From: Parvularcula dongshanensis
GTDB taxonomy: Bacteria; Pseudomonadota; Alphaproteobacteria; Caulobacterales; Parvularculaceae
Assembly (NCBI RefSeq): GCF_014199615.1
Contig: NZ_JACHOB010000002.1
Location: forward strand, 124,001-188,000
DNA length: 64,000 nt
Direction of reading: 5' to 3'
Part shown: positions 17,596 to 59,273 of the stretch, in pieces
Numbering within the stretch: position 1 is the first letter of the stretch
Layout of the letters: each line of letters opens with the position of its first letter
Program-made: the position numbers and the translations under genes
The notes under the pieces: model-generated
What the model saw: only the letters and a program-made list of their open reading frames with translations
What the model was told of the DNA's origin: nothing
Databases searched by the model: none

Positions 17596-18669
17596 ATGCC
17601 CTCCATCACCCCCGTCATCATGTCCGGCGGCTCCGGCACGCGGCTGTGGCCCCTGTCCCGCCACGCCGACCCGAAGCAGTACCGCCCCCTCGTCTCCGAC
17701 CGCACCATGCTGGAGGAGACCGCCGTCCGCGTGACGCAGGCCGGAGCGGACGTGAAGCGGCCGGTCGTCATCTGCTCCGAGGCGCATTGCGGGCGCATCA
17801 CCAGCCTCCTCGCCGAGATGGGCGGCCCGTCCGCCGTCATCACCGAGCCTGTGGGCCGGAACACCGCCCCGGTCGCCATCGTCGCCAGCCTTCACGTAGC
17901 ACAGGACGATCCCGAGGGGATGGTTCTCCTTCTGCCCGCCGACCACTTCGTACGGGACGTCGAAGGGTTCTGGCAGGCCGTGCGCCGCGGGGAGGAGGCC
18001 GCCCGTCGCGGTCACCTCGTCACCCTCGGGATCAAGCCGACCGCGCCCGAGAGCGGCTATGGCTACATCAAGCGCGGCGCCCCGCTGACGGAAGGGGTCT
18101 ACGAGGTGGAGGCGTTCCGGGAGAAGCCCGACGTCGAGACCGCGAAGTCCTACCTCGAGGATGGCTCTTACGCTTGGAACGCAGGCATCTTCCTGTTCCG
18201 GGCCCGCGACCTGCTGGAAGAGGCCCAGCGCTTCGTGCCGGAGATGATGGCCGAGGTCAGGAAGGCCTACGACCGGGCGGTGCAGGACGGCACGACGCTC
18301 CGCCTCGACGAGGCCAGCTTCGCGCAGGTCCCGGCGGACTCGATCGACTACGCGATCATGGAGCGGACCGAGCGCGCGGCCATCGTGCATCCCGTCGACG
18401 TCGGCTGGGACGACATCGGCTCGTGGAGCGCGGTCGCGAGCCTCGCCCGCGGGGCGGACAGCGTCGCGGCGAAGGGCGACGTCGTGACGATCGACTGCGA
18501 GGATACCTATGTCCGCTCCGAAGGGCCGCTGGTGGCGGCGGTGGGCCTGAAGGGCGTGATCGTCGTCGCGATGGACGACGCGGTCCTCGTCATCGACGAG
18601 AGCCGGTCGCAGGACGTCAAGGCGATCATCGAGCAGCTCAAGGCCGGCGATCGGAGCGCGCTCCTATGA
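17596..18669 (+). CDS. Mannose-1-phosphate guanylyltransferase
   Basis: A 357-residue nucleotidyltransferase starting at ATG 17596. The signature GGSGTRLWPLSRHADPKQY (residues about 9-27) binds GTP, FREKPDVETA is the sugar-phosphate motif, and VGWDDIGSWSAV is conserved in GDP-mannose pyrophosphorylases. It makes GDP-mannose from mannose-1-phosphate and GTP for surface polysaccharide. At this length it lacks the C-terminal cupin (phosphomannose isomerase) domain of the longer ManC/AlgA enzymes. The next gene, overlapping as ATGA, encodes an AGE-fold isomerase that could supply that missing step. Confidence 0.92.
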   Translation: MPSITPVIMSGGSGTRLWPLSRHADPKQYRPLVSDRTMLEETAVRVTQAGADVKRPVVICSEAHCGRITSLLAEMGGPSAVITEPVGRNTAPVAIVASLHVAQDDPEGMVLLLPADHFVRDVEGFWQAVRRGEEAARRGHLVTLGIKPTAPESGYGYIKRGAPLTEGVYEVEAFREKPDVETAKSYLEDGSYAWNAGIFLFRARDLLEEAQRFVPEMMAEVRKAYDRAVQDGTTLRLDEASFAQVPADSIDYAIMERTERAAIVHPVDVGWDDIGSWSAVASLARGADSVAAKGDVVTIDCEDTYVRSEGPLVAAVGLKGVIVVAMDDAVLVIDESRSQDVKAIIEQLKAGDRSALL

Positions 18670-19814
18670 CCGACCTTTCCGCCGCCAATGCGCGCCTCAA
18701 GTCCTGGATGATCGAGACCTGCCTGCCCATGTGGTCGCGACGAGCGCGGGACCATCGCGGCGGCTTCTACGAAGCGCTGACGCCCGACGGCGCGCCGCTC
18801 ATGGACCGGAACAAGCGCTTCCGCGTGCAGCCGCGCCAGGCCTACGCCTTCGCCCACGCGGAGCACCTCGGCTGGACCGAGCAGGGACGCAGCGCGTCCG
18901 ACCATGCCTTCGCCTTCGCGCTCGAGGCGGGGACGGACGACCACAGCCTGGCGGGCGACGGCACCTTCACCGGCTTCGCACACGTCCTGTCGCCCGAAGG
19001 CGCCGTGGTGGACGCGAAGCGCGACACCTACGACCACGCCTTCGTCCTCTTGGCCTGCGCCTGGCGCGGAATCGCCTTCGGCGATGCGCAGTCGCGCGAA
19101 GTCGCGGAGCGCACCATCGGCTTCCTCGACACCATCGGGCAGCCCGACGGCAGCTACCTGGAGGGCAAGCCCGACGCCCTGCCCCGCCGTCAGAACCCGC
19201 ACATGCACCTCTTCGAGGCGTTCATGGCGCTTCACCGCGCAGGGCTGGACGGCGCGCTCGACCGTGCGAAGGCCATCCATCGTCTCTTTACGGAGCGCTT
19301 CTGGGACGGTGAAGTCCTGCGCGAGTTCTTCGCCGAAGATCTTACCCCCGATCCCGAACGCGGGGACGTCATCGAACCCGGCCACATGGTCGAGTGGGTC
19401 TGGCTTCTCGACGCTTACGAAGAGCTGACCGGCGAGGACCAGTCGGCGCTGATGCACGCGCTCTACGAGGCGGCCGAGCGCACCGGCATGGGCCACGACG
19501 GCTGGCTCATCGACGAGGCGAAGGCGGACGGCACGCCGCTTCGCACGACGCGCCGTTCCTGGGTCGCGATCGAGCACGCCAAGGCAAGCCTCGTTCTAGC
19601 GCGGCGGGGCGAAACGGCGATGGAGGGGAAGGCCGCGCGCCTGATCGACGGCATGCTCGGCAGCTACTTCGATGCCCCCTTCCCCGGCGGTTGGAACGAG
19701 CAGTACGACGCGGACGGACGGGTCGTGAGCGAAGACATGCCGACCAGCATCCTCTATCACGTGGTCAGCCTCGCGGCGGAAGCGGACCGGACGGCGACTG
19801 CGTTGGGACGCTGA
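18666..19814 (+). CDS. AGE-family sugar epimerase/isomerase
   Basis: A 382-residue (alpha/alpha)6-barrel protein of the N-acylglucosamine 2-epimerase family. The start ATG 18666 overlaps the stop of the guanylyltransferase gene. Family landmarks are RFRVQPRQAYAFAHAEHLGW near residue 42, DTYDHAF, QNPHMHLFEAFMAL and PGHMVEWVWLLD; the His residues form the catalytic set. The family includes N-acetylglucosamine 2-epimerases, mannose isomerases and mannose-6-phosphate isomerase-like members. The tight coupling to GDP-mannose synthesis favours interconversion of mannose or fructose (phosphate), but this is inference. Confidence 0.9.
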   Translation: MTDLSAANARLKSWMIETCLPMWSRRARDHRGGFYEALTPDGAPLMDRNKRFRVQPRQAYAFAHAEHLGWTEQGRSASDHAFAFALEAGTDDHSLAGDGTFTGFAHVLSPEGAVVDAKRDTYDHAFVLLACAWRGIAFGDAQSREVAERTIGFLDTIGQPDGSYLEGKPDALPRRQNPHMHLFEAFMALHRAGLDGALDRAKAIHRLFTERFWDGEVLREFFAEDLTPDPERGDVIEPGHMVEWVWLLDAYEELTGEDQSALMHALYEAAERTGMGHDGWLIDEAKADGTPLRTTRRSWVAIEHAKASLVLARRGETAMEGKAARLIDGMLGSYFDAPFPGGWNEQYDADGRVVSEDMPTSILYHVVSLAAEADRTATALGR

Positions 19815-19853: not shown

Positions 19854-20198
19854 GTCCGCTCGCGCGGTGGTACGATGGTCCGGGGTGTCCCGCGCGCGGC
19901 TCGCCGCAGCGAAGGGTTTGATTTGGAGTTGCTGCGGCGTGAAGGGTCCCACACCGTAGCCTGACGCGCGGTACGGGACCCTCCACCTCCCTCGAGGCGA
20001 TCCGCCGGGGCCGTTCTTCAGCTCGCCCGGCGCGTGTCTGGCCTGACCAAGTGGGATGCATTCCATCATCCAGACTTCGTCAGCACGTGACCTCGTGGCG
20101 GCAGGCAGGGGAGACGTCAGCTGTCCGCCCCGCCCCGGTCCTGCCGCGACGGGGGGAGAATGGCACGGGGCCAAGGGGGCGGGGATAAGTCGTAGGGC
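19854..20198 (+). repeat. Dispersed intergenic element, copy A
   Basis: It matches 33115-33439 at both ends. The first block (19854-19912) aligns nearly end to end with 33115-33171 and includes a 23-nt exact match (19890-19912 with 33149-33171) and the shared ATGGTCCGG. The second block (20116-20198) aligns with 33359-33439 at the same internal spacing (GTCAG to GGGATAAG is 66 nt here, 65 nt there), sharing AGAA.GGCA.GGG and GGGATAAG. The middle is poorly conserved. Block one folds as a stem, with CGCGCGG pairing to CCGCGCG. The strand shown is arbitrary. Confidence 0.65.
19939..19986 (+). repeat. Inverted repeat (48-nt hairpin) inside copy A
   Basis: The arms 19939-19950 and 19975-19986 pair over 12 bp with one A-C mismatch, and ACCG/CGGT can pair again inside the loop. 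No T-run follows on either strand, so it is not an ordinary terminator. Copy B has a weaker inverted repeat (AGGCAG 33173-33178 with CTGCCT 33217-33222) of similar span. Confidence 0.6.
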
Positions 20199-20345
20199 GA
20201 CTGCGCGGGCACGAACGCCGAGGCGGCGCGCAGGGAATGCCCGCAGCCTCGGGGCCGGACGATAAGACATCGCGAGCGGCAAGGTCGGTGCGCGGCTGCC
20301 GGAGAGGCCGGAAGCCGTCGGTGGCAGTGTGGCCGGGCAGCCGCC

Positions 20346-22553
20346 CTACGCGGCCGCCTTCTCTTCGCCGTAGAGCGATTGGCCCTTCTTCGCCATCTCG
20401 CGGAAGGCTTCGGGCGGAGAGAAGCGGTCGCCGTGCTTGGCGGCGAGACGGTCGGCTGTCTCGACGAAGGTCTTCACCCCGACCATGTCGATGTAGCTCA
20501 TCGGGCCGCCGGTCCAGGGACAGAAGCCCCAGCCGAAGATGGCGCCGAGGTCCGCCGACTGCGGATCGTGGACGACGCCCTGCGCGTACATCCGCGCCGC
20601 GTTGACGAGCTGGTTGTAGAGGAGACGTTCCTTGACCTCCTCTGCGCTCGGCTGCTCGGCCGCATGCGGATAGTGCTCGGTCAGGCCGGGCCAGATGCGT
20701 TTCTTCTCGCCCTCGGGGTAGTCGTAGAAGCCCTTGCCGACCTTGCGGCCCTTCCGGCCGAGCTCGTCCACGAAGAGCTCCAGCATGTCTTCGACGCCCG
20801 TGGGGACGTAGGCGTCGCCCATGTCGCGCTGGGCCGAGCGAGTAATCGAGAGGCCGAGCTCCTGGCTCGTTTCGTCCATGAGAGCGAGCGGCCCCACCGG
20901 CATGCCCATGTGGACGGCGCAGTTGTCGATGAGGGCGGCGGAGATTCCCTCCTTCACCATCAGCGCCGCCTCGTTGAGGTAGGGCACGACGACGGAGTTG
21001 CAGTAGAAGCCGCGCGCATCCGAGACCACGATCGGCGTCTTCTTGATCTTCGCCACGTAGTCGAGCGCGGTGGCGAGCGCCTTGTCGCCCGTGCCCTCGG
21101 GGCGGATGATCTCAACCAGCGGCATCTTGTCGACGGGCGAGAAGAAGTGGATGCCGATGAACTGGTCCGGCCGCTTCGAGTTCGCGGCCAGGCTGGCGAT
21201 CGGAATGGTCGAGGTGTTGGACGCGAAGACGACGTCCTCGGGGATCACCGCTTCGGTCTTCTCGGTGACATCCCTTTTGACGCCCGGGTCCTCGAACACG
21301 GCCTCGATGATGAGGTCGACGTCCTTGAGGTCCGCATAGTCCGTCGTCGTCTTGATGCGGGCCAGCATCTCTTCGGAGGCTTCCTTGGTCAGCTTGCCCC
21401 GGCCGATGCCCTTCTCGTTGAGCTTGGCTGAGTAGGCCTTGCCCTTCTCCGCATACGACATGTCGCGGTCGAGGAGGACGACCTCCATGCCGGCGCGCGC
21501 CGTGACGTAGGCGATGCCCGCGCCCATCATGCCGGCGCCGAGGACGCCCACGCGTCTGAGGTCAGACTTCGGCACGCCTTCGGGGCGGGCCATGCCCTTC
21601 TCCGCCGCCTGCTTGTTCACGAACAGGGTACGGATCATGTTCTGCGCCTGCGGCTCCATCAGGCACTTGGTGAAGTACTTCGATTCGATTCTGAGGCCGG
21701 TGTCGATCGGGACGATCGAGCCCTCGTAGATCGAGGAGAGGATGCGCTGAACCGCGGGGTAGTTGTGGTTGGTCGTTCCCTGCGCCATCGCGCTCGCGCC
21801 CGCGAAGATCGGCACGACGCGCGGGTCCATCGCGCCCGCGCCGCCAGGGATCTTGAAGCCCTTCTTGTCCCAGCGCTGGGTGGACTTAGGGTTGTCGCGG
21901 CACCACTGCTTGGCGCGATCGATCAGTTCGCCCTCGGGCACGATCTCGTCGAGGAAGCCCGCCGCCTTCGCCTCCGCTGCCTTCATGGGCTTGCCGAGGG
22001 AGCAGGTCTGAAGCGCCGTTTGAACGCCCGCGAGGCGCAGCGTGCGCTGCGTGCCGCCCGCGCCCGGGATGAGGCCGACCTGCACCTCGGGTTGGCCCAT
22101 CTGGACGCGCCCATTGTCCGCCGCGAGGCGGTAGTGGCAGGCGAGCGCCAGCTCCATCCCGCCGCCGAGCGCGAGGCCGTTCACCGCCGCGACCACGGGC
22201 TTGGCGGTCGCCGCGCCCTTGAGGAGGTCCTTGGGCGCCCTGCCCGCCGTCTCCATCTTGCGAAGGAGGGATTGGAGCTTGAAGTTCTCTTCGAAGACCT
22301 GCGCGGCGGTCGCGTCCGCCGGCACGTCGCTCAGCATGCGGAGGTCGGCACCCGCGAGGAAGCCAGACGCCTTGCCGGAGGTGACGACGAGGCCGGTGAT
22401 CGCATCGTCGCTCGCGAAGCGGTCGATGACTGCCGAGAACTCCTCGATCAGCGCCCGGTTCCAGACGTTCATCGAGGCGTCCGGCAGGTCGATCGTGACG
22501 AGCGCGATGCCGTCTGCGTCGATGTCGAGGGTCAGGGTATCGTAGTCTGACAT
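20346..22553 (-). CDS. Multifunctional enoyl-CoA hydratase / 3-hydroxyacyl-CoA dehydrogenase (FadB/FadJ type)
   Basis: A 735-residue protein starting at ATG 22553 (MSDYDTLTLDI). The N-terminal crotonase domain has GGGMELALACHYRLA and PEVQVGLIPGAGGTQR with the two catalytic Glu regions. The dehydrogenase part has the NAD motif VGVLGAGMMGAGIAYVTAR, IGIHFFSPVDKMPLVEII with the catalytic His, and the C-terminal helical domains. It performs hydration and NAD-linked oxidation of enoyl-CoA in beta-oxidation. It forms an operon with the upstream thiolase, with a DUF805 gene inserted between them. Confidence 0.95.
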   Translation of the reverse strand: MSDYDTLTLDIDADGIALVTIDLPDASMNVWNRALIEEFSAVIDRFASDDAITGLVVTSGKASGFLAGADLRMLSDVPADATAAQVFEENFKLQSLLRKMETAGRAPKDLLKGAATAKPVVAAVNGLALGGGMELALACHYRLAADNGRVQMGQPEVQVGLIPGAGGTQRTLRLAGVQTALQTCSLGKPMKAAEAKAAGFLDEIVPEGELIDRAKQWCRDNPKSTQRWDKKGFKIPGGAGAMDPRVVPIFAGASAMAQGTTNHNYPAVQRILSSIYEGSIVPIDTGLRIESKYFTKCLMEPQAQNMIRTLFVNKQAAEKGMARPEGVPKSDLRRVGVLGAGMMGAGIAYVTARAGMEVVLLDRDMSYAEKGKAYSAKLNEKGIGRGKLTKEASEEMLARIKTTTDYADLKDVDLIIEAVFEDPGVKRDVTEKTEAVIPEDVVFASNTSTIPIASLAANSKRPDQFIGIHFFSPVDKMPLVEIIRPEGTGDKALATALDYVAKIKKTPIVVSDARGFYCNSVVVPYLNEAALMVKEGISAALIDNCAVHMGMPVGPLALMDETSQELGLSITRSAQRDMGDAYVPTGVEDMLELFVDELGRKGRKVGKGFYDYPEGEKKRIWPGLTEHYPHAAEQPSAEEVKERLLYNQLVNAARMYAQGVVHDPQSADLGAIFGWGFCPWTGGPMSYIDMVGVKTFVETADRLAAKHGDRFSPPEAFREMAKKGQSLYGEEKAAA

Positions 22554-32722: not shown

Positions 32723-33001
32723 TCAGCCGGCCGCGACGATGTCGCGCTTCACCTTGCGGGCACGATCCGAGAGGACGTCGTCCTTTGCCTTGGCGAGGAA
32801 CGCGTCGAGACCGCCCACATGGTCGACCGAACGCAAGGCGTGTGCCGAGATGCGGAACTTGAAGCTGCGCTCGAGCTTGTCGCTCATCAGCGTGACCTTG
32901 CACAGGTTCGGCAGGAAGCGACGCTTGGTCTTGTTGTTGGCGTGAGACACGTTGTGGCCCGTGATGGGACCTTTACCGGTGAACTCGCAGACGCGGGACA
33001 T
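32723..33001 (-). CDS. rpmB: 50S ribosomal protein L28
   Basis: A 92-residue L28 with the diagnostic [20 protein letters not shown] and [12 protein letters not shown] at the N-terminus and [20 protein letters not shown] in the middle. It is an alphaproteobacterial-length form without the zinc-binding Cys set of other L28 types. It is transcribed alone from a good promoter about 50-80 nt upstream, and the VUT-like gene follows 43 nt downstream. Confidence 0.98.
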
Positions 33002-33080: not shown

Positions 33081-33667
33081 GTTGGAGGATCGGGGATGCC
33101 GTGCAGCCCTTCTCGTCCGCTGCGCGGTGATAGCATGGTCCGGCGGATCCGCGCGCGGCTCGCCGCAGCGAGAGGCAGGGAAGACGATACTGTAGCTACG
33201 GCGTTCGGGGATCCTACTGCCTAGACCGCACGCGGTCGCACGGCTTCTTCGCAGGCCCTGGCTAGAGTTCGCCCTGCTGCCATGGGACCGAAGGAGGAGA
33301 AAAGCGGCGAACCAGCCCCTGTCCCTTCAGCCGAAGCCATGCGGCGACGAACGGGAAGGTCAGGCGGCCGTCCCACCCCCGGTTGCCCGCCGCGCAGACA
33401 GAACGGCATGGGCGGCGCGGGCAGGGATAAGCCTAGAGCCCCCGCGATGCGAGGCTGAGCGATCATCAGCGCGTCGCGTTTCCGTGGCTCATAGAACCGA
33501 TGGCAGACTTGCCATGACCTTCCGACGCTTCCCAAGCCTCGACCCAGAATGAAAACCAGCGCACTGCCCGCCCCCCTTGGAAAAACGCAAGGTCAGTTCA
33601 AGGACGTGTAGACCTCAGATTAACCGGCACGTTGCAAGCGGAGGTGGTTGTCGAGAGAGCGCTACCG
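33081..33667 (+). other. 587-nt gene-free region, holds repeat copy B
   Basis: It lies between the divergent rpmB and two-repeat lipoprotein genes. Repeat copy B occupies 33115-33439. The remaining 33440-33667 is less GC-rich than the neighbourhood and has no convincing gene. A 104-codon reverse open frame at 33221-33535 has no ribosome site and is not conserved in register in copy A. I see no clear promoter for the lipoprotein gene. Confidence 0.65.
33115..33439 (+). repeat. Dispersed intergenic element, copy B
   Basis: The counterpart of 19854-20198. Block one (33115-33171) folds as GCGCGG...CCGCGC and contains the 23-nt exact core (33149-33171). Block two runs from GTCAG at 33359 to TAGAGC at 33439 and contains GGGATAAG at 33424-33431. 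It is about 20 nt shorter than copy A, the difference lying just after block one. Its left edge is 35 nt upstream of the rpmB promoter. Confidence 0.65.
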
Positions 33668-57411: not shown

Positions 57412-59273
57412 CGAGCCTTCCCTCCGCCGACCTCACCGTCGAGGACGGCACCCCGCGCTCATCGCGCTTCGGCGACGTCTACTACTCGGCCGCGGACGGC
57501 TTCGCCGAAGCCTGGCACGTCTTCGTCGAGGGCAACGACCTGCCCCGCCGCTTCGCGGCGCTGCGGGAAGGTCAGACCTTCACCATCGGCGAACTCGGCT
57601 TCGGCACCGGCCTCAACGTCGCCGCCGCGCTCCTCGCCTTCTACCGGCGGGACCATGATCGCGGCAGGCTCGCCATCTGGTCCGTCGAAGGATTTCCGGT
57701 TCCGCGCGAACGGTTCCGGTCGCTCGCCGAAGAGGCGGCCGAGCGCTGGGCGGAAGCCGCGCCGGTCCTGAGGGCTCTGGCTGCCGCCTATCCGGACCCC
57801 GTGCCCGGCCAGGCGGCGCTACGCATCGAAGCGGTCGACCTCGTCCTTTCCTTCGGAGAGGTGCGGCCTTCCTTGCAGAGCGCGCTCCTGCGCGCCGACG
57901 CCTGGTTCCTCGACGGCTTCGCGCCCTCGCGAAACCCGGACATGTGGTCGGAGGCGGTCATGCGCCTCGTCGGCGCCCGTTCGGCCATCGGCGCGACGGC
58001 TGCGACCTTCACCGTGGCGGGGGCGGTTCGGCGGGGGCTGCAGGCGGCGGGCTTCGACACCGAGAAGACGCCCGGCTTCGGCCGCAAGCGCGAGATGACC
58101 CGGGCCCGCCTTCTCCGCCGCCCGAGCGAGGAGTCGGTGCCCGCACCCCTGCGCCTCACCCCGCTGCTCGGCGTCCCCGCGCCGGAAGGGCCCGTCGCGA
58201 TCCTCGGCGCGGGCATCGCGGGGGCCTCTCTCGCCTGGCACCTTCGGCGGGCGGGGCGGGAGGTCGTCCTCTTCGATCCGAACGGCGCCGCCTCGGGCGC
58301 GTCGGGCAACCCCGTCGGGCTCGTCACGCCCCGTTTGGAGGCGGGCGGCGGGTGGGCGGCGCGCTTCTATCGCGACGCCTACCGCTACGCCCTGTCGCTC
58401 TACGAGGACGCGGCGAGCGCTGCTCTGTCGACGCGGGGGGCGGACATCGCCGCGGACGATGCCCGCGCGGCGAAGACGATCGCGACCGGCTTGTGGCCGG
58501 AAGCGATGCTGCGCCTGGAACGAGAAGGGCTCCGCGCGGATGGCGCTGCGGCCTTGCGGCCGGCCATGGTCGTCAGAGCACTGATCGGGGACACCCCGCT
58601 CCTCGAACGGACAGGAACGCTATCCGCCGGCGCGGGAGGCTGGCGCGTCGGCGCAGACGGGCCCTTCGCGGCCGCGGTCGTTGCGTGCGGTCCCGACGCC
58701 GCGGCTCTCGGCGGGTTGCATACGGAACTTTCCGCCTCGGACGGGCAGATCGACCTTTTCGGCGGCCCCGCCCCGGCCCGGGTCCTCTCCGGAAGGGGCT
58801 ACGCCGCCCCCTATGAGGACGGCGTCGCGGTCGGCGCGACCTACGCGCCCGGCCGGATCGGGGCGAGACCGGCCCCGTCCGCCGACGCGACCGAAGAGAA
58901 CGAGGCGCGCGGCGAGGCGCTGCTCGGCAGCCGCCCGAGCGGATGGCGGGCGGCGGTCGCCTCGCAGCGCGCGGTCACGCCGGATCGCCACCCCGTCGCC
59001 GGGCCCCTCTTCGATCGCACCCTCTTTGCCGAGCGGTTCGAGGGCCTGCGCACGGGCCGCGTCGGCGATGCCGATCCGCCCTACGCCGAGGGGCTCTTCG
59101 TCCTGAGCGGCCTCGGCAGCCGAGGCCTGTCGGCTGCGCCGCTGCTGGCCGCTCATCTCAGCGCCCTGATCACGGGCGGACCGTCGCCCCTTGATGCGGG
59201 CGAGGCGAGCGGTGTGCACCCCGCGCGCTTTCTCATGCGGCGCATGAAGCGAGGTGATGCGGAACGAGGCTGA
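57408..59273 (+). CDS. mnmC: Bifunctional tRNA modification enzyme MnmC
   Basis: A 621-residue protein starting at GTG 57408. The N-terminal methyltransferase half has FTIGELGFGTGLNVAAAL and ADAWFLDGFAPSRNPDMWS. The C-terminal FAD oxidoreductase has VAILGAGIAGASLAWHLRRA, GASGNPVGLVTPRLEAGGG and the closing GLFVLSGLGSRGLSAAPLLA. It converts cmnm5(s2)U34 to mnm5(s2)U34 in tRNA wobble positions. Both halves are intact. Coupled to the transglycosylase gene. Confidence 0.95.
   Translation: MTSLPSADLTVEDGTPRSSRFGDVYYSAADGFAEAWHVFVEGNDLPRRFAALREGQTFTIGELGFGTGLNVAAALLAFYRRDHDRGRLAIWSVEGFPVPRERFRSLAEEAAERWAEAAPVLRALAAAYPDPVPGQAALRIEAVDLVLSFGEVRPSLQSALLRADAWFLDGFAPSRNPDMWSEAVMRLVGARSAIGATAATFTVAGAVRRGLQAAGFDTEKTPGFGRKREMTRARLLRRPSEESVPAPLRLTPLLGVPAPEGPVAILGAGIAGASLAWHLRRAGREVVLFDPNGAASGASGNPVGLVTPRLEAGGGWAARFYRDAYRYALSLYEDAASAALSTRGADIAADDARAAKTIATGLWPEAMLRLEREGLRADGAAALRPAMVVRALIGDTPLLERTGTLSAGAGGWRVGADGPFAAAVVACGPDAAALGGLHTELSASDGQIDLFGGPAPARVLSGRGYAAPYEDGVAVGATYAPGRIGARPAPSADATEENEARGEALLGSRPSGWRAAVASQRAVTPDRHPVAGPLFDRTLFAERFEGLRTGRVGDADPPYAEGLFVLSGLGSRGLSAAPLLAAHLSALITGGPSPLDAGEASGVHPARFLMRRMKRGDAERG

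What the first reader, a model, noticed from the sequence alone, without database searches (positions are those of the whole stretch)
19854..20198. Structured intergenic element present twice in the window (partner 33115-33439)
Two gene-free regions 13 kb apart share a 23-nt exact core (19890-19912, 33149-33171) inside a longer similar block, and a second similar block at the same distance (GTCAG to GGGATAAG 66 vs 65 nt). The first block folds as a stem. The one open reverse frame crossing both copies is in a different register at GGGATAAG (codons begin at 20189 in A, 33430 in B), so protein coding is not what is conserved. A dispersed non-coding RNA, a non-autonomous mobile repeat or a nucleoid/regulatory repeat would all fit. 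The middle has diverged while both ends are kept.
Basis: seen in the sequence. Interest (0 to 1): 0.7.

Follow-up and report, generated by a model that had tools for sequence, protein, structure and literature searches.

The report
Many-copy RNA genes with a GTA-like promoter
The two look-alike intergenic stretches belong to an apparently undescribed family of folded RNA genes, scattered in up to about twenty copies per genome in one bacterial genus, and they share a promoter signal with genes of the bacterium's virus-like gene-transfer particles.

Summary
A is one of 17 close copies in its genome; B is a diverged member. A covariance model from 13 copies gives 70 matches in 8 of 10 genomes of the genus (which includes Parvularcula mediterranea) and none in 52 other genomes of the family. 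In 23 of 24 modelled pairs, paired changes occur on both sides: a structured RNA. Folding energy and promoter position favour the strand opposite to the one read. The kept block GGGGATAAGT is, reverse-complemented, ACTTATCCCC, a promoter box. In this genome it occurs 23 times (reversed control 0): 14 copies like A, 6 copies of a second RNA-like family and 3 protein genes, one with gene-transfer-agent (GTA) domains, two matching phage families. In other genomes of the genus it precedes phage/GTA-type terminase, spike-base, DUF2793 and DnaA-like regulator genes, and lies upstream of capsid genes, inside the protease gene. Best reading: free-standing RNA genes of a GTA-type regulon. Transcription and molecular role are untested. 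Copies persist in two species without the capsid gene.

The parts
20181..20190 (-). Copy A promoter box ACTTATCCCC (GGGGATAAGT on +)
   Evidence: 23 exact copies in the genome, 0 of the reversed control; shared with phage/GTA-type genes
20157..20162 (-). Copy A -10-like element CATTCT, 28 nt from the first base of the box
   Evidence: promoter alignment (sequence); A itself lacks the TA; inferred
19855..20150 (-). Copy A inferred RNA body (start and end approximate)
   Evidence: element limits from the copy alignments; strand from folding energy
20098..20147 (-). Copy A helix P6, arms 20140-20147 and 20098-20105
   Evidence: arms seen directly; similar arms changed on both sides in other copies, but the search procedure did not separate clearly from a shuffled control
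20004..20031 (-). Copy A hairpin P4, loop with CGAGCT
   Evidence: 46 of 51 copies examined have at least 5 of 6 pairs, 23 distinct arm pairs (arms chosen among several offsets, no control run for P4)
19877..19982 (-). Copy A three-way junction P1/P2/P3 (model R1 match, 97.7 bits; A was in the training set)
19947..19953 (-). Copy A P3 loop, TGTGGGA on the transcribed strand
   Evidence: alignment A2
19911..19930 (-). Copy A P2 loop, variable and G-poor on the transcribed strand
   Evidence: 55 distinct loops in 69 copies, 6.1% G; diversity profile
19856..19867 (-). Copy A terminal hairpin H0 (CCGC-loop-GCGG)
   Evidence: seen directly; a hairpin in this place seen by eye in other copies
33423..33432 (-). 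Copy B degenerate promoter box GCTTATCCCT (2 mismatches)
33110..33392 (-). Copy B inferred RNA body, ending about 110 nt upstream of rpmB (32723-33001, same strand)
   Evidence: alignment to the family
33136..33246 (-). Copy B three-way junction P1/P2/P3 (model R1 match, 73.3 bits; B was in the training set)

Best explanation
A and B are members of a many-copy family of about 300-nt structured non-coding RNA genes (class I here), found in 8 of 10 genomes of the genus. They are transcribed from the minus strand of the window, as free-standing units, from a promoter made of the box ACTTATCCCC and a -10-like element at a nearly fixed distance. The same box heads phage/GTA-type genes (terminase, head-spike base, DUF2793 proteins; also inside the protease gene upstream of the capsid gene) and, in several genomes, the gene of a small protein with a DnaA-type DNA-binding domain. 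So the RNAs are inferred to be made when the GTA programme is switched on by a GafA/GafY-like activator that binds the box. SHOWN by sequence: family, conserved structure, shared box, lineage-specific subfamilies. INFERRED: strand and transcription, activator binding, timing. PROPOSED mechanism: many promoters give a large dose of a compact RNA whose scaffold (three-way junction with a conserved P3 loop, TGGGA or close variants) binds a common partner, while the exposed, G-poor, copy-specific P2 loop offers variable single-stranded contacts: trans-acting RNAs of the GTA-producing cell. Mosaic alleles suggest recombination between copies.
For: Own genome: 17 places at 82-100% plus B and one more found by the model. 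Model R1 (13 sequences from G000, G002, G003, G005): 70 matches at E<=0.01 in 8 of 10 genus genomes, 27 of them in G001, G004, G008 and G009, which gave no training sequence. 69 were carried on; G001:C173:173-282 was left out by oversight. Pair test on 65 distinct rows: 88.3% of cells paired (shuffles 71.3, slid structures 28-54), 224 double-change cells (shuffles 51.0, slid 10-63) (alignment fitted to the model). Strand: minus-strand folding energy lower in 60 of 68 copies, mean 9.8 kcal/mol. Box with at most 1 mismatch in 54 of 69 copies (one too short to scan) against 1 of 133 control stretches. TA 27 nt from the first base of the box in 16 of 23 protein-gene sites (13 of 18 without the five inside the protease gene), 19 of 29 other RNA-like sites, 15 of 33 distinct class I sites. 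Own-genome box sites: 14 class I, 6 second family, 3 protein genes. Protein identities. Box with 0-1 mismatch before the DnaA_C small protein in G000, G002, G006, G007, G008. 17 of 19 own-genome class I copies do not overlap a coding-like ORF, with mixed neighbour orientations.
Against: No transcript data. Strand by wobble pairs is mixed: G.U 53 against A.C 57 over all pairs; P1 and P2 lean to minus, P3 to plus; the G002 subfamily folds better on plus. The five box sites upstream of capsid genes lie inside the protease reading frame, so protein coding may explain part of their conservation. G000 (19 copies) and G002 (10) have no phage capsid match and a fused terminase-tail ORF, so the RNA is not needed only for making particles. 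G006 and G007 carry the box before terminase but no class I match. The box is not above its control in G006 (3 and 3) and hardly in G004 (5 and 4). Some box sites precede genes with no known GTA link (Ffh, a RepC-like protein, others). B's box has 2 mismatches. The DnaA-like protein is not shown to be GafA/GafY: the one scanned matches PRK06030-type hypothetical proteins and DnaA below cut-off, and no box was found before it in G004.
Confidence: 0.7

Rival explanations
1. A non-autonomous mobile element (MITE- or SINE-like) that carries an RNA gene and has captured a GTA-type promoter; the RNA serves the element's own spread, and copies accumulate in intergenic repeats.
For: Lineage-specific subfamilies with many copies; B's rpmB site is empty in 9 of 9 other genomes and A's site after the epimerase gene is filled in 1 of 9 (a 17.8-bit match in G002 at E 0.41 not counted); many copies abut other repeats such as CGTAGGGCGG palindromes.
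Against: No protein family recurs near the 69 copies beyond frames inside the repeat and shared neighbours; no inverted-repeat ends or target duplication seen by eye in the flanks (no formal scan); at least three copy pairs in different species share flanking genes, so some copies are inherited in place; no match in phages or plasmids.
Confidence: 0.3
2. The repeats act as DNA: dispersed decoy or nucleation sites for the GTA activator or for DNA packaging, and the RNA is a by-product.
For: The box is among the most constant parts and resembles a DnaA box (consensus recalled); many sites per genome could titrate an activator.
Against: Compensatory changes in a stretch of about 100 nt well away from the box, in 8 genomes; a -10-like element at a nearly fixed distance; the second family repeats the promoter-plus-body design.
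Confidence: 0.1
3. A cis-acting leader or terminator/antiterminator target, comparable to the GC-rich 150-bp direct repeats that terminate transcription in the Caulobacter GTA cluster.
For: GC-rich hairpins behind a GTA-type promoter; B lies upstream of rpmB on the same strand; such repeats are reported for Caulobacter (PMC11150451, passages seen).
Against: Neighbour genes of the 19 own-genome copies lie in mixed orientations, 7 with an upstream gene on the same strand and a downstream gene on the opposite one; in the DUF2793 and spike-base genes the start codon is only 45-66 nt after the box, leaving no room for such a body (one G003 DUF2793 gene has a second box 159 nt before the start).
Confidence: 0.08
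4. An ordinary dispersed intergenic repeat with no function.
For: Hairpin-rich intergenic repeats are common in bacteria (recalled); folding alone is cheap in DNA of 69% GC.
Against: Paired changes far beyond shuffled and slid controls; box kept with the body in 54 of 69 copies.
Confidence: 0.05

Closest known systems
GafA / GafY-controlled GTA regulons (Rhodobacter capsulatus, Caulobacter crescentus)
   Same: GafA has a DnaA-like N-terminal domain (PMC6363796); Caulobacter GafY was found upstream of the GTA cluster, distant loci and gafYZ itself (PMC9632790). Here one box heads phage/GTA-type genes, RNA genes and, in several genomes, a DnaA-HTH gene.
   Different: The terms non-coding, ncRNA (and small RNA or noncoding) gave no hit in PMC11150451, PMC9632790 and PMC13236601 (main text only, supplements not seen). 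In Caulobacter the GafY site lies at -123 to -113; here the box lies in the -35 region.
GOLLD and ROOL RNAs
   Same: Large folded phage- or prophage-linked RNAs of unknown function; GOLLD rises during phage lysis (PMC12286853, passages seen).
   Different: No Rfam match at gathering score; about 300 nt rather than 659 nt or over 800; many copies per genome.
terGTA repeats of Caulobacter
   Same: GC-rich repeats with inverted repeats in a GTA transcription unit (PMC11150451).
   Different: Three direct 150-bp repeats behind the first gene of one cluster; here dispersed units with their own promoter. Sequences were not compared.
Intergenic mosaic repeats (ERIC, RIME, REP type; recalled)
   Same: Dispersed, intergenic, hairpin-forming, mosaic.
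   Different: As far as I recall these lack a shared dedicated promoter and a covarying three-way junction; not tested.

Membership tests
Any of the 4227 Rfam families | covariance-model match at gathering score | tested here: not met
   Window: only a tRNA. Eleven element loci at E<=5: no match on an element reached gathering score; one mir-74 match of 20 bits (gathering 57) overlaps a copy in L099
GTA regulon (GafA/GafY type) | promoter shared with GTA structural genes | tested here: met
   same exact box before the terminase or fused terminase ORF in G000, G002, G003, G005, G006, G007, G009. GTA domains were shown for G000 and G002 only; elsewhere GTA is inferred from gene order
GTA regulon (GafA/GafY type) | activator with DnaA-like DNA-binding domain encoded in the genome | tested here: inconclusive
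   small PF08299 protein beside DnaA in 10 of 10 genomes; orthology to GafA/GafY not shown; no search for a GafZ-like protein
GTA regulon (GafA/GafY type) | activator binds the promoter and induces the gene | not testable with these tools
   needs ChIP-seq and RNA-seq
GOLLD/ROOL | Rfam model match and length above 600 nt | tested here: not met
   element about 345 bp including promoter
MITE | terminal inverted repeats and target duplication | tested here: inconclusive
   none seen by eye in the flanks of 18 copies; no formal scan, no empty site aligned
RNA guide of IscB/TnpB/IS110 type | associated nuclease or recombinase gene | tested here: not met
   no protein family recurs within about 1.5-2.5 kb of 69 copies; a partner elsewhere in the genome was not sought
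RNA guide of IscB/TnpB/IS110 type | variable segment matches the flanking target | tested here: not met
   P2 loop shares exact words of mean 6.2 nt with own flanks and 6.1 nt with flanks of other copies

The most novel reading that the evidence does not exclude
Gene-transfer-agent programmes in this genus have an RNA arm: two or more families of structured RNAs, up to about 25 gene copies in the own genome, class I copies carrying G-poor variable loops, fired together with terminase and spike genes. The RNAs act in trans (as antisense or decoy RNAs with a common scaffold, or as RNA assemblies), and they outlive the loss of the capsid gene in two species.
Probability: 0.3. Interest if true: 0.92.

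Novelty: categorically new. Interest (0 to 1): 0.78.

Why it matters
GTAs are treated as protein machines run by a cluster and a few accessory loci. A set of many-copy RNA genes under the same promoter would mean that structured RNA is a main product of a GTA-on cell, with a new role to find: host take-over, timing of lysis, packaging or immunity. It also gives a one-line test (does the RNA appear in GTA-on cells?) and a search tool: a 10-bp box whose 23 occurrences in the own genome are all accounted for by two RNA families and three GTA- or phage-type genes.

Tried and rejected
Rejected: protein coding (1-2 nt indels among copies). Rejected: known Rfam family. Rejected: element-borne enzyme or guide system (no recurrent neighbour protein; loops do not match flanks). 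Rejected after first favouring it: a plus-strand RNA whose P3 loop pairs with the 3' GGGA; on the minus strand that GGGA is promoter. Rejected: B as a conserved leader of rpmB (site empty in 9 other genomes). Led nowhere: P6 covariation by automatic stem search (all 8 pairs in 39 of 61 copies, but also in 25 of 68 shuffled stretches); phage, plasmid and viral-contig searches (no match); papers on Parvularcula and RNA or repeats or on GTAs and RNA: nothing on such RNAs in the titles and abstract starts listed. Second family: consensus energy -23.3 on the transcript strand against -21.5 on the reverse, single-sequence folds 11 to 8, so its strand and structure are only weakly supported (19 of 23 loci picked passed the motif filter, and 3 of the 6 own-genome copies were among those dropped by it).

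Full report
What was checked. The two stretches were read. A blastn of A against its own genome (3,134,647 bp, 16 contigs) gives 17 near full-length places including itself at 82-100%, and B at E = 8e-15 over 69 bp. B finds the same family. So A is one of 17 close copies and B a diverged member. A further diverged copy lies at C1:1112376.

Family and structure. Blastn picked up relatives in 4 of 60 other genomes, all of the same genus. From 13 sequences (G000, G002, G003, G005) I built model R1 of a three-way junction P1/P2/P3: 107 positions, 24 pairs. R1 gives 70 matches at E<=0.01 in 8 of 10 genomes of the genus: G000 19, G003 11, G001 11, G002 10, G008 8, G009 5, G004 3, G005 3, none in G006 and G007. 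I carried 69 on; one in G001 (C173:173-282) was left out by oversight. At E<=0.001, with stricter filters and 63 candidates scored per genome, it finds none in the 52 genomes of other genera of the family. 27 of the 70 lie in four genomes that gave no training sequence. On 65 distinct rows 88.3% of pair cells are standard pairs (shuffles 71.3%), 23 of 24 pairs show changes on both sides, and 224 cells do (shuffles 51.0; structures slid by 1-3 columns 10-63). The alignment was fitted to the model, which favours it.

Which strand. Single-sequence folding of the inferred body is better on the minus strand (window sense) in 60 of 68 copies, by 9.8 kcal/mol on average. Consensus folding agrees for the G000, G001 and G003 subfamilies and disagrees for G002. 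Wobble evidence is mixed: over all pairs G.U 53, A.C 57; without one P3 pair 27 and 57; P3 alone favours plus. The promoter evidence decides for minus.

The promoter. Six places in the own genome matched only the last part of A. Read on the minus strand they begin ACTTATCCCC and continue into a different, mutually similar body of about 300 nt. The 10-mer occurs 23 times in the own genome, its reversed control 0 times: 14 class I copies, those 6, and 3 protein genes. The proteins: an 800-aa ORF with Terminase_6N, GTA_TIM, Phage-tail_3 and Rcc01698_C domains, 253 nt after the box; a DUF2793 protein 60 nt after it, which also matches phage families including a tail fibre; and a 175-aa protein 60 nt after it that matches phrog_1544 of unknown function. 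That DUF2793 and Rcc01079-family proteins belong to GTAs is recalled.

In the genus. Box and reversed-control counts: G003 26/1, G000 23/0, G009 18/0, G001 13/2, G005 12/1, G008 12/4, G007 8/3, G002 6/1, G004 5/4, G006 3/3. I read 60 fetched stretches at box sites, not all sites of all genomes. Confirmed by profile: terminase in G003, G005, G006, G007, G009 and the fused ORF in G002; spike-base proteins of the Rcc01079 family in G003 and G009; DUF2793 proteins in G002, G003, G007, G008, G009; a DnaA_C protein in G007. Boxes also lie about 0.7 kb upstream of the capsid match in G001, G003, G005, G007, G008 and G009, 6 of the 8 genomes with a capsid match (coordinates); in the five of these that I read, the box is inside the prohead-protease frame, so its conservation there may partly reflect the protein. 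Sites with no known GTA link exist: Ffh in G005 and G009, a protein weakly like RepC in G005 and G009, GDT1, a beta-lactamase-fold protein and others. Aligned at the box, TA of a -10-like element starts 27 nt from its first base in 16 of 23 protein-gene sites (13 of 18 without those inside the protease), 19 of 29 other RNA-like sites and 15 of 33 distinct class I sites. Of 69 class I copies 35 have the exact box and 54 have at most one mismatch; one was too short to scan; of 133 control stretches 1 has at most one mismatch.

A candidate regulator. PF08299 (DnaA domain IV type) finds DnaA plus a small protein in each of the 10 genomes (G008 has a third, weak match). A box with 0-1 mismatch lies 138-156 nt upstream of the domain in G000, G002, G006, G007 and G008; G003, G005 and G009 have TTATCCAC at about -130; G001 has TTATCCCC; none was found in G004. 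By coordinates the gene lies about 14-20 kb from the terminase box or capsid match in G000, G003, G004, G005, G007 and G009, but not in G006. R. capsulatus GafA has a DnaA-like N-terminal domain, and Caulobacter GafY was found upstream of the GTA cluster, other loci and its own operon (PMC6363796, PMC9632790; passages). That ACTTATCCCC resembles a DnaA box is my comparison with a consensus from memory.

Second RNA family. Box-led bodies with a shared TTnAAG(T/C)GCT element occur in G000, G003, G005 and G009. Support for its structure is weak so far.

Variation. Within the subfamilies of four species, alleles reassort in blocks. In the P2 loop I count 55 distinct forms among 69 copies, with 6.1% G on the transcribed strand; in the G003 subfamily that loop is nearly constant. 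It does not match the flanks of its own copy better than other flanks. The variable tail of nearly fixed length is a promoter spacer on this reading.

Against. The PF05065 capsid match is absent from G000 and G002 and present in the other 8, and both have a fused terminase-tail ORF. These two still carry 19 and 10 class I matches. So either the regulon has outlived the particle or the RNA serves something else. G006 and G007 have the box before terminase but no class I match.

Judgement. Real structured RNA family: near certain. Minus strand with this promoter: likely. GTA-type regulon: likely by shared promoter, untested. Molecular role: open; trans-acting RNA is my best guess. I found no report of such RNAs in the searches named, which cover open-licence papers only; of the papers I saw listings, starts of abstracts and the passages cited, and no supplements.

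Noticed in passing
L258:9365-11767 (G000:C1 about 1077.4-1079.8 kb) and L299:611-2901 (G002, runs to the end of the fetched stretch): An open frame (800 aa, and at least 763 aa) fusing a terminase N-terminal domain to GTA_TIM, Phage-tail_3 and Rcc01698_C domains; no phage capsid match in either genome. It looks like a shared internal collapse of the GTA cluster that stayed open.
   Followed up: partly
20341-20350 and 59076-59085 in the window; beside the box of many copies: CGTAGGGCGG-type repeats lie directly beside the promoter box of many class I copies in G000 and, as CGTAGGGTGG, in G002.
   Followed up: no
Upstream (window sense) of copies such as L002, L003, L005, L006, L011, L015, L017: A further repeat (GCTACCGGCGGGCTGACCGCC...) lies near the terminal-hairpin side of many G000 copies.
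   Followed up: no
L265 (G005) and L273 (G009): ACTTATCCCC also stands about 180 nt upstream of the SRP protein gene ffh in two species (the G009 protein judged by its near-identical start).
   Followed up: partly
L270 (G005) and L284 (G009): The box precedes a 396-421-aa frame weakly like replication protein RepC on a small contig in both species.
   Followed up: partly
L061:669-802: Two sub-threshold matches to whalefall-1 RNA (32.4 and 31.3 bits, gathering 37), about 0.7-0.9 kb from a class I copy in G003.
   Followed up: no
L105:2789-2890: A sub-threshold match to the alphaproteobacterial sRNA ar14 (33.2 bits, gathering 58.8), about 1.2 kb from a class I copy in G004.
   Followed up: no
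L278 (G009:C2:138354 and 139268): Two class I copies with near-identical promoter-proximal halves, about 0.9 kb apart; the first looks truncated.
   Followed up: no
17646-19814: The epimerase ORF is called at 722 aa but the family match covers only residues 373-707; the true start is probably further downstream.
   Followed up: no
L285, L320: DUF2793 proteins behind the box have different C-terminal parts (beta-helix, SASA esterase), as one would expect of glycan-binding or glycan-degrading spikes.
   Followed up: partly
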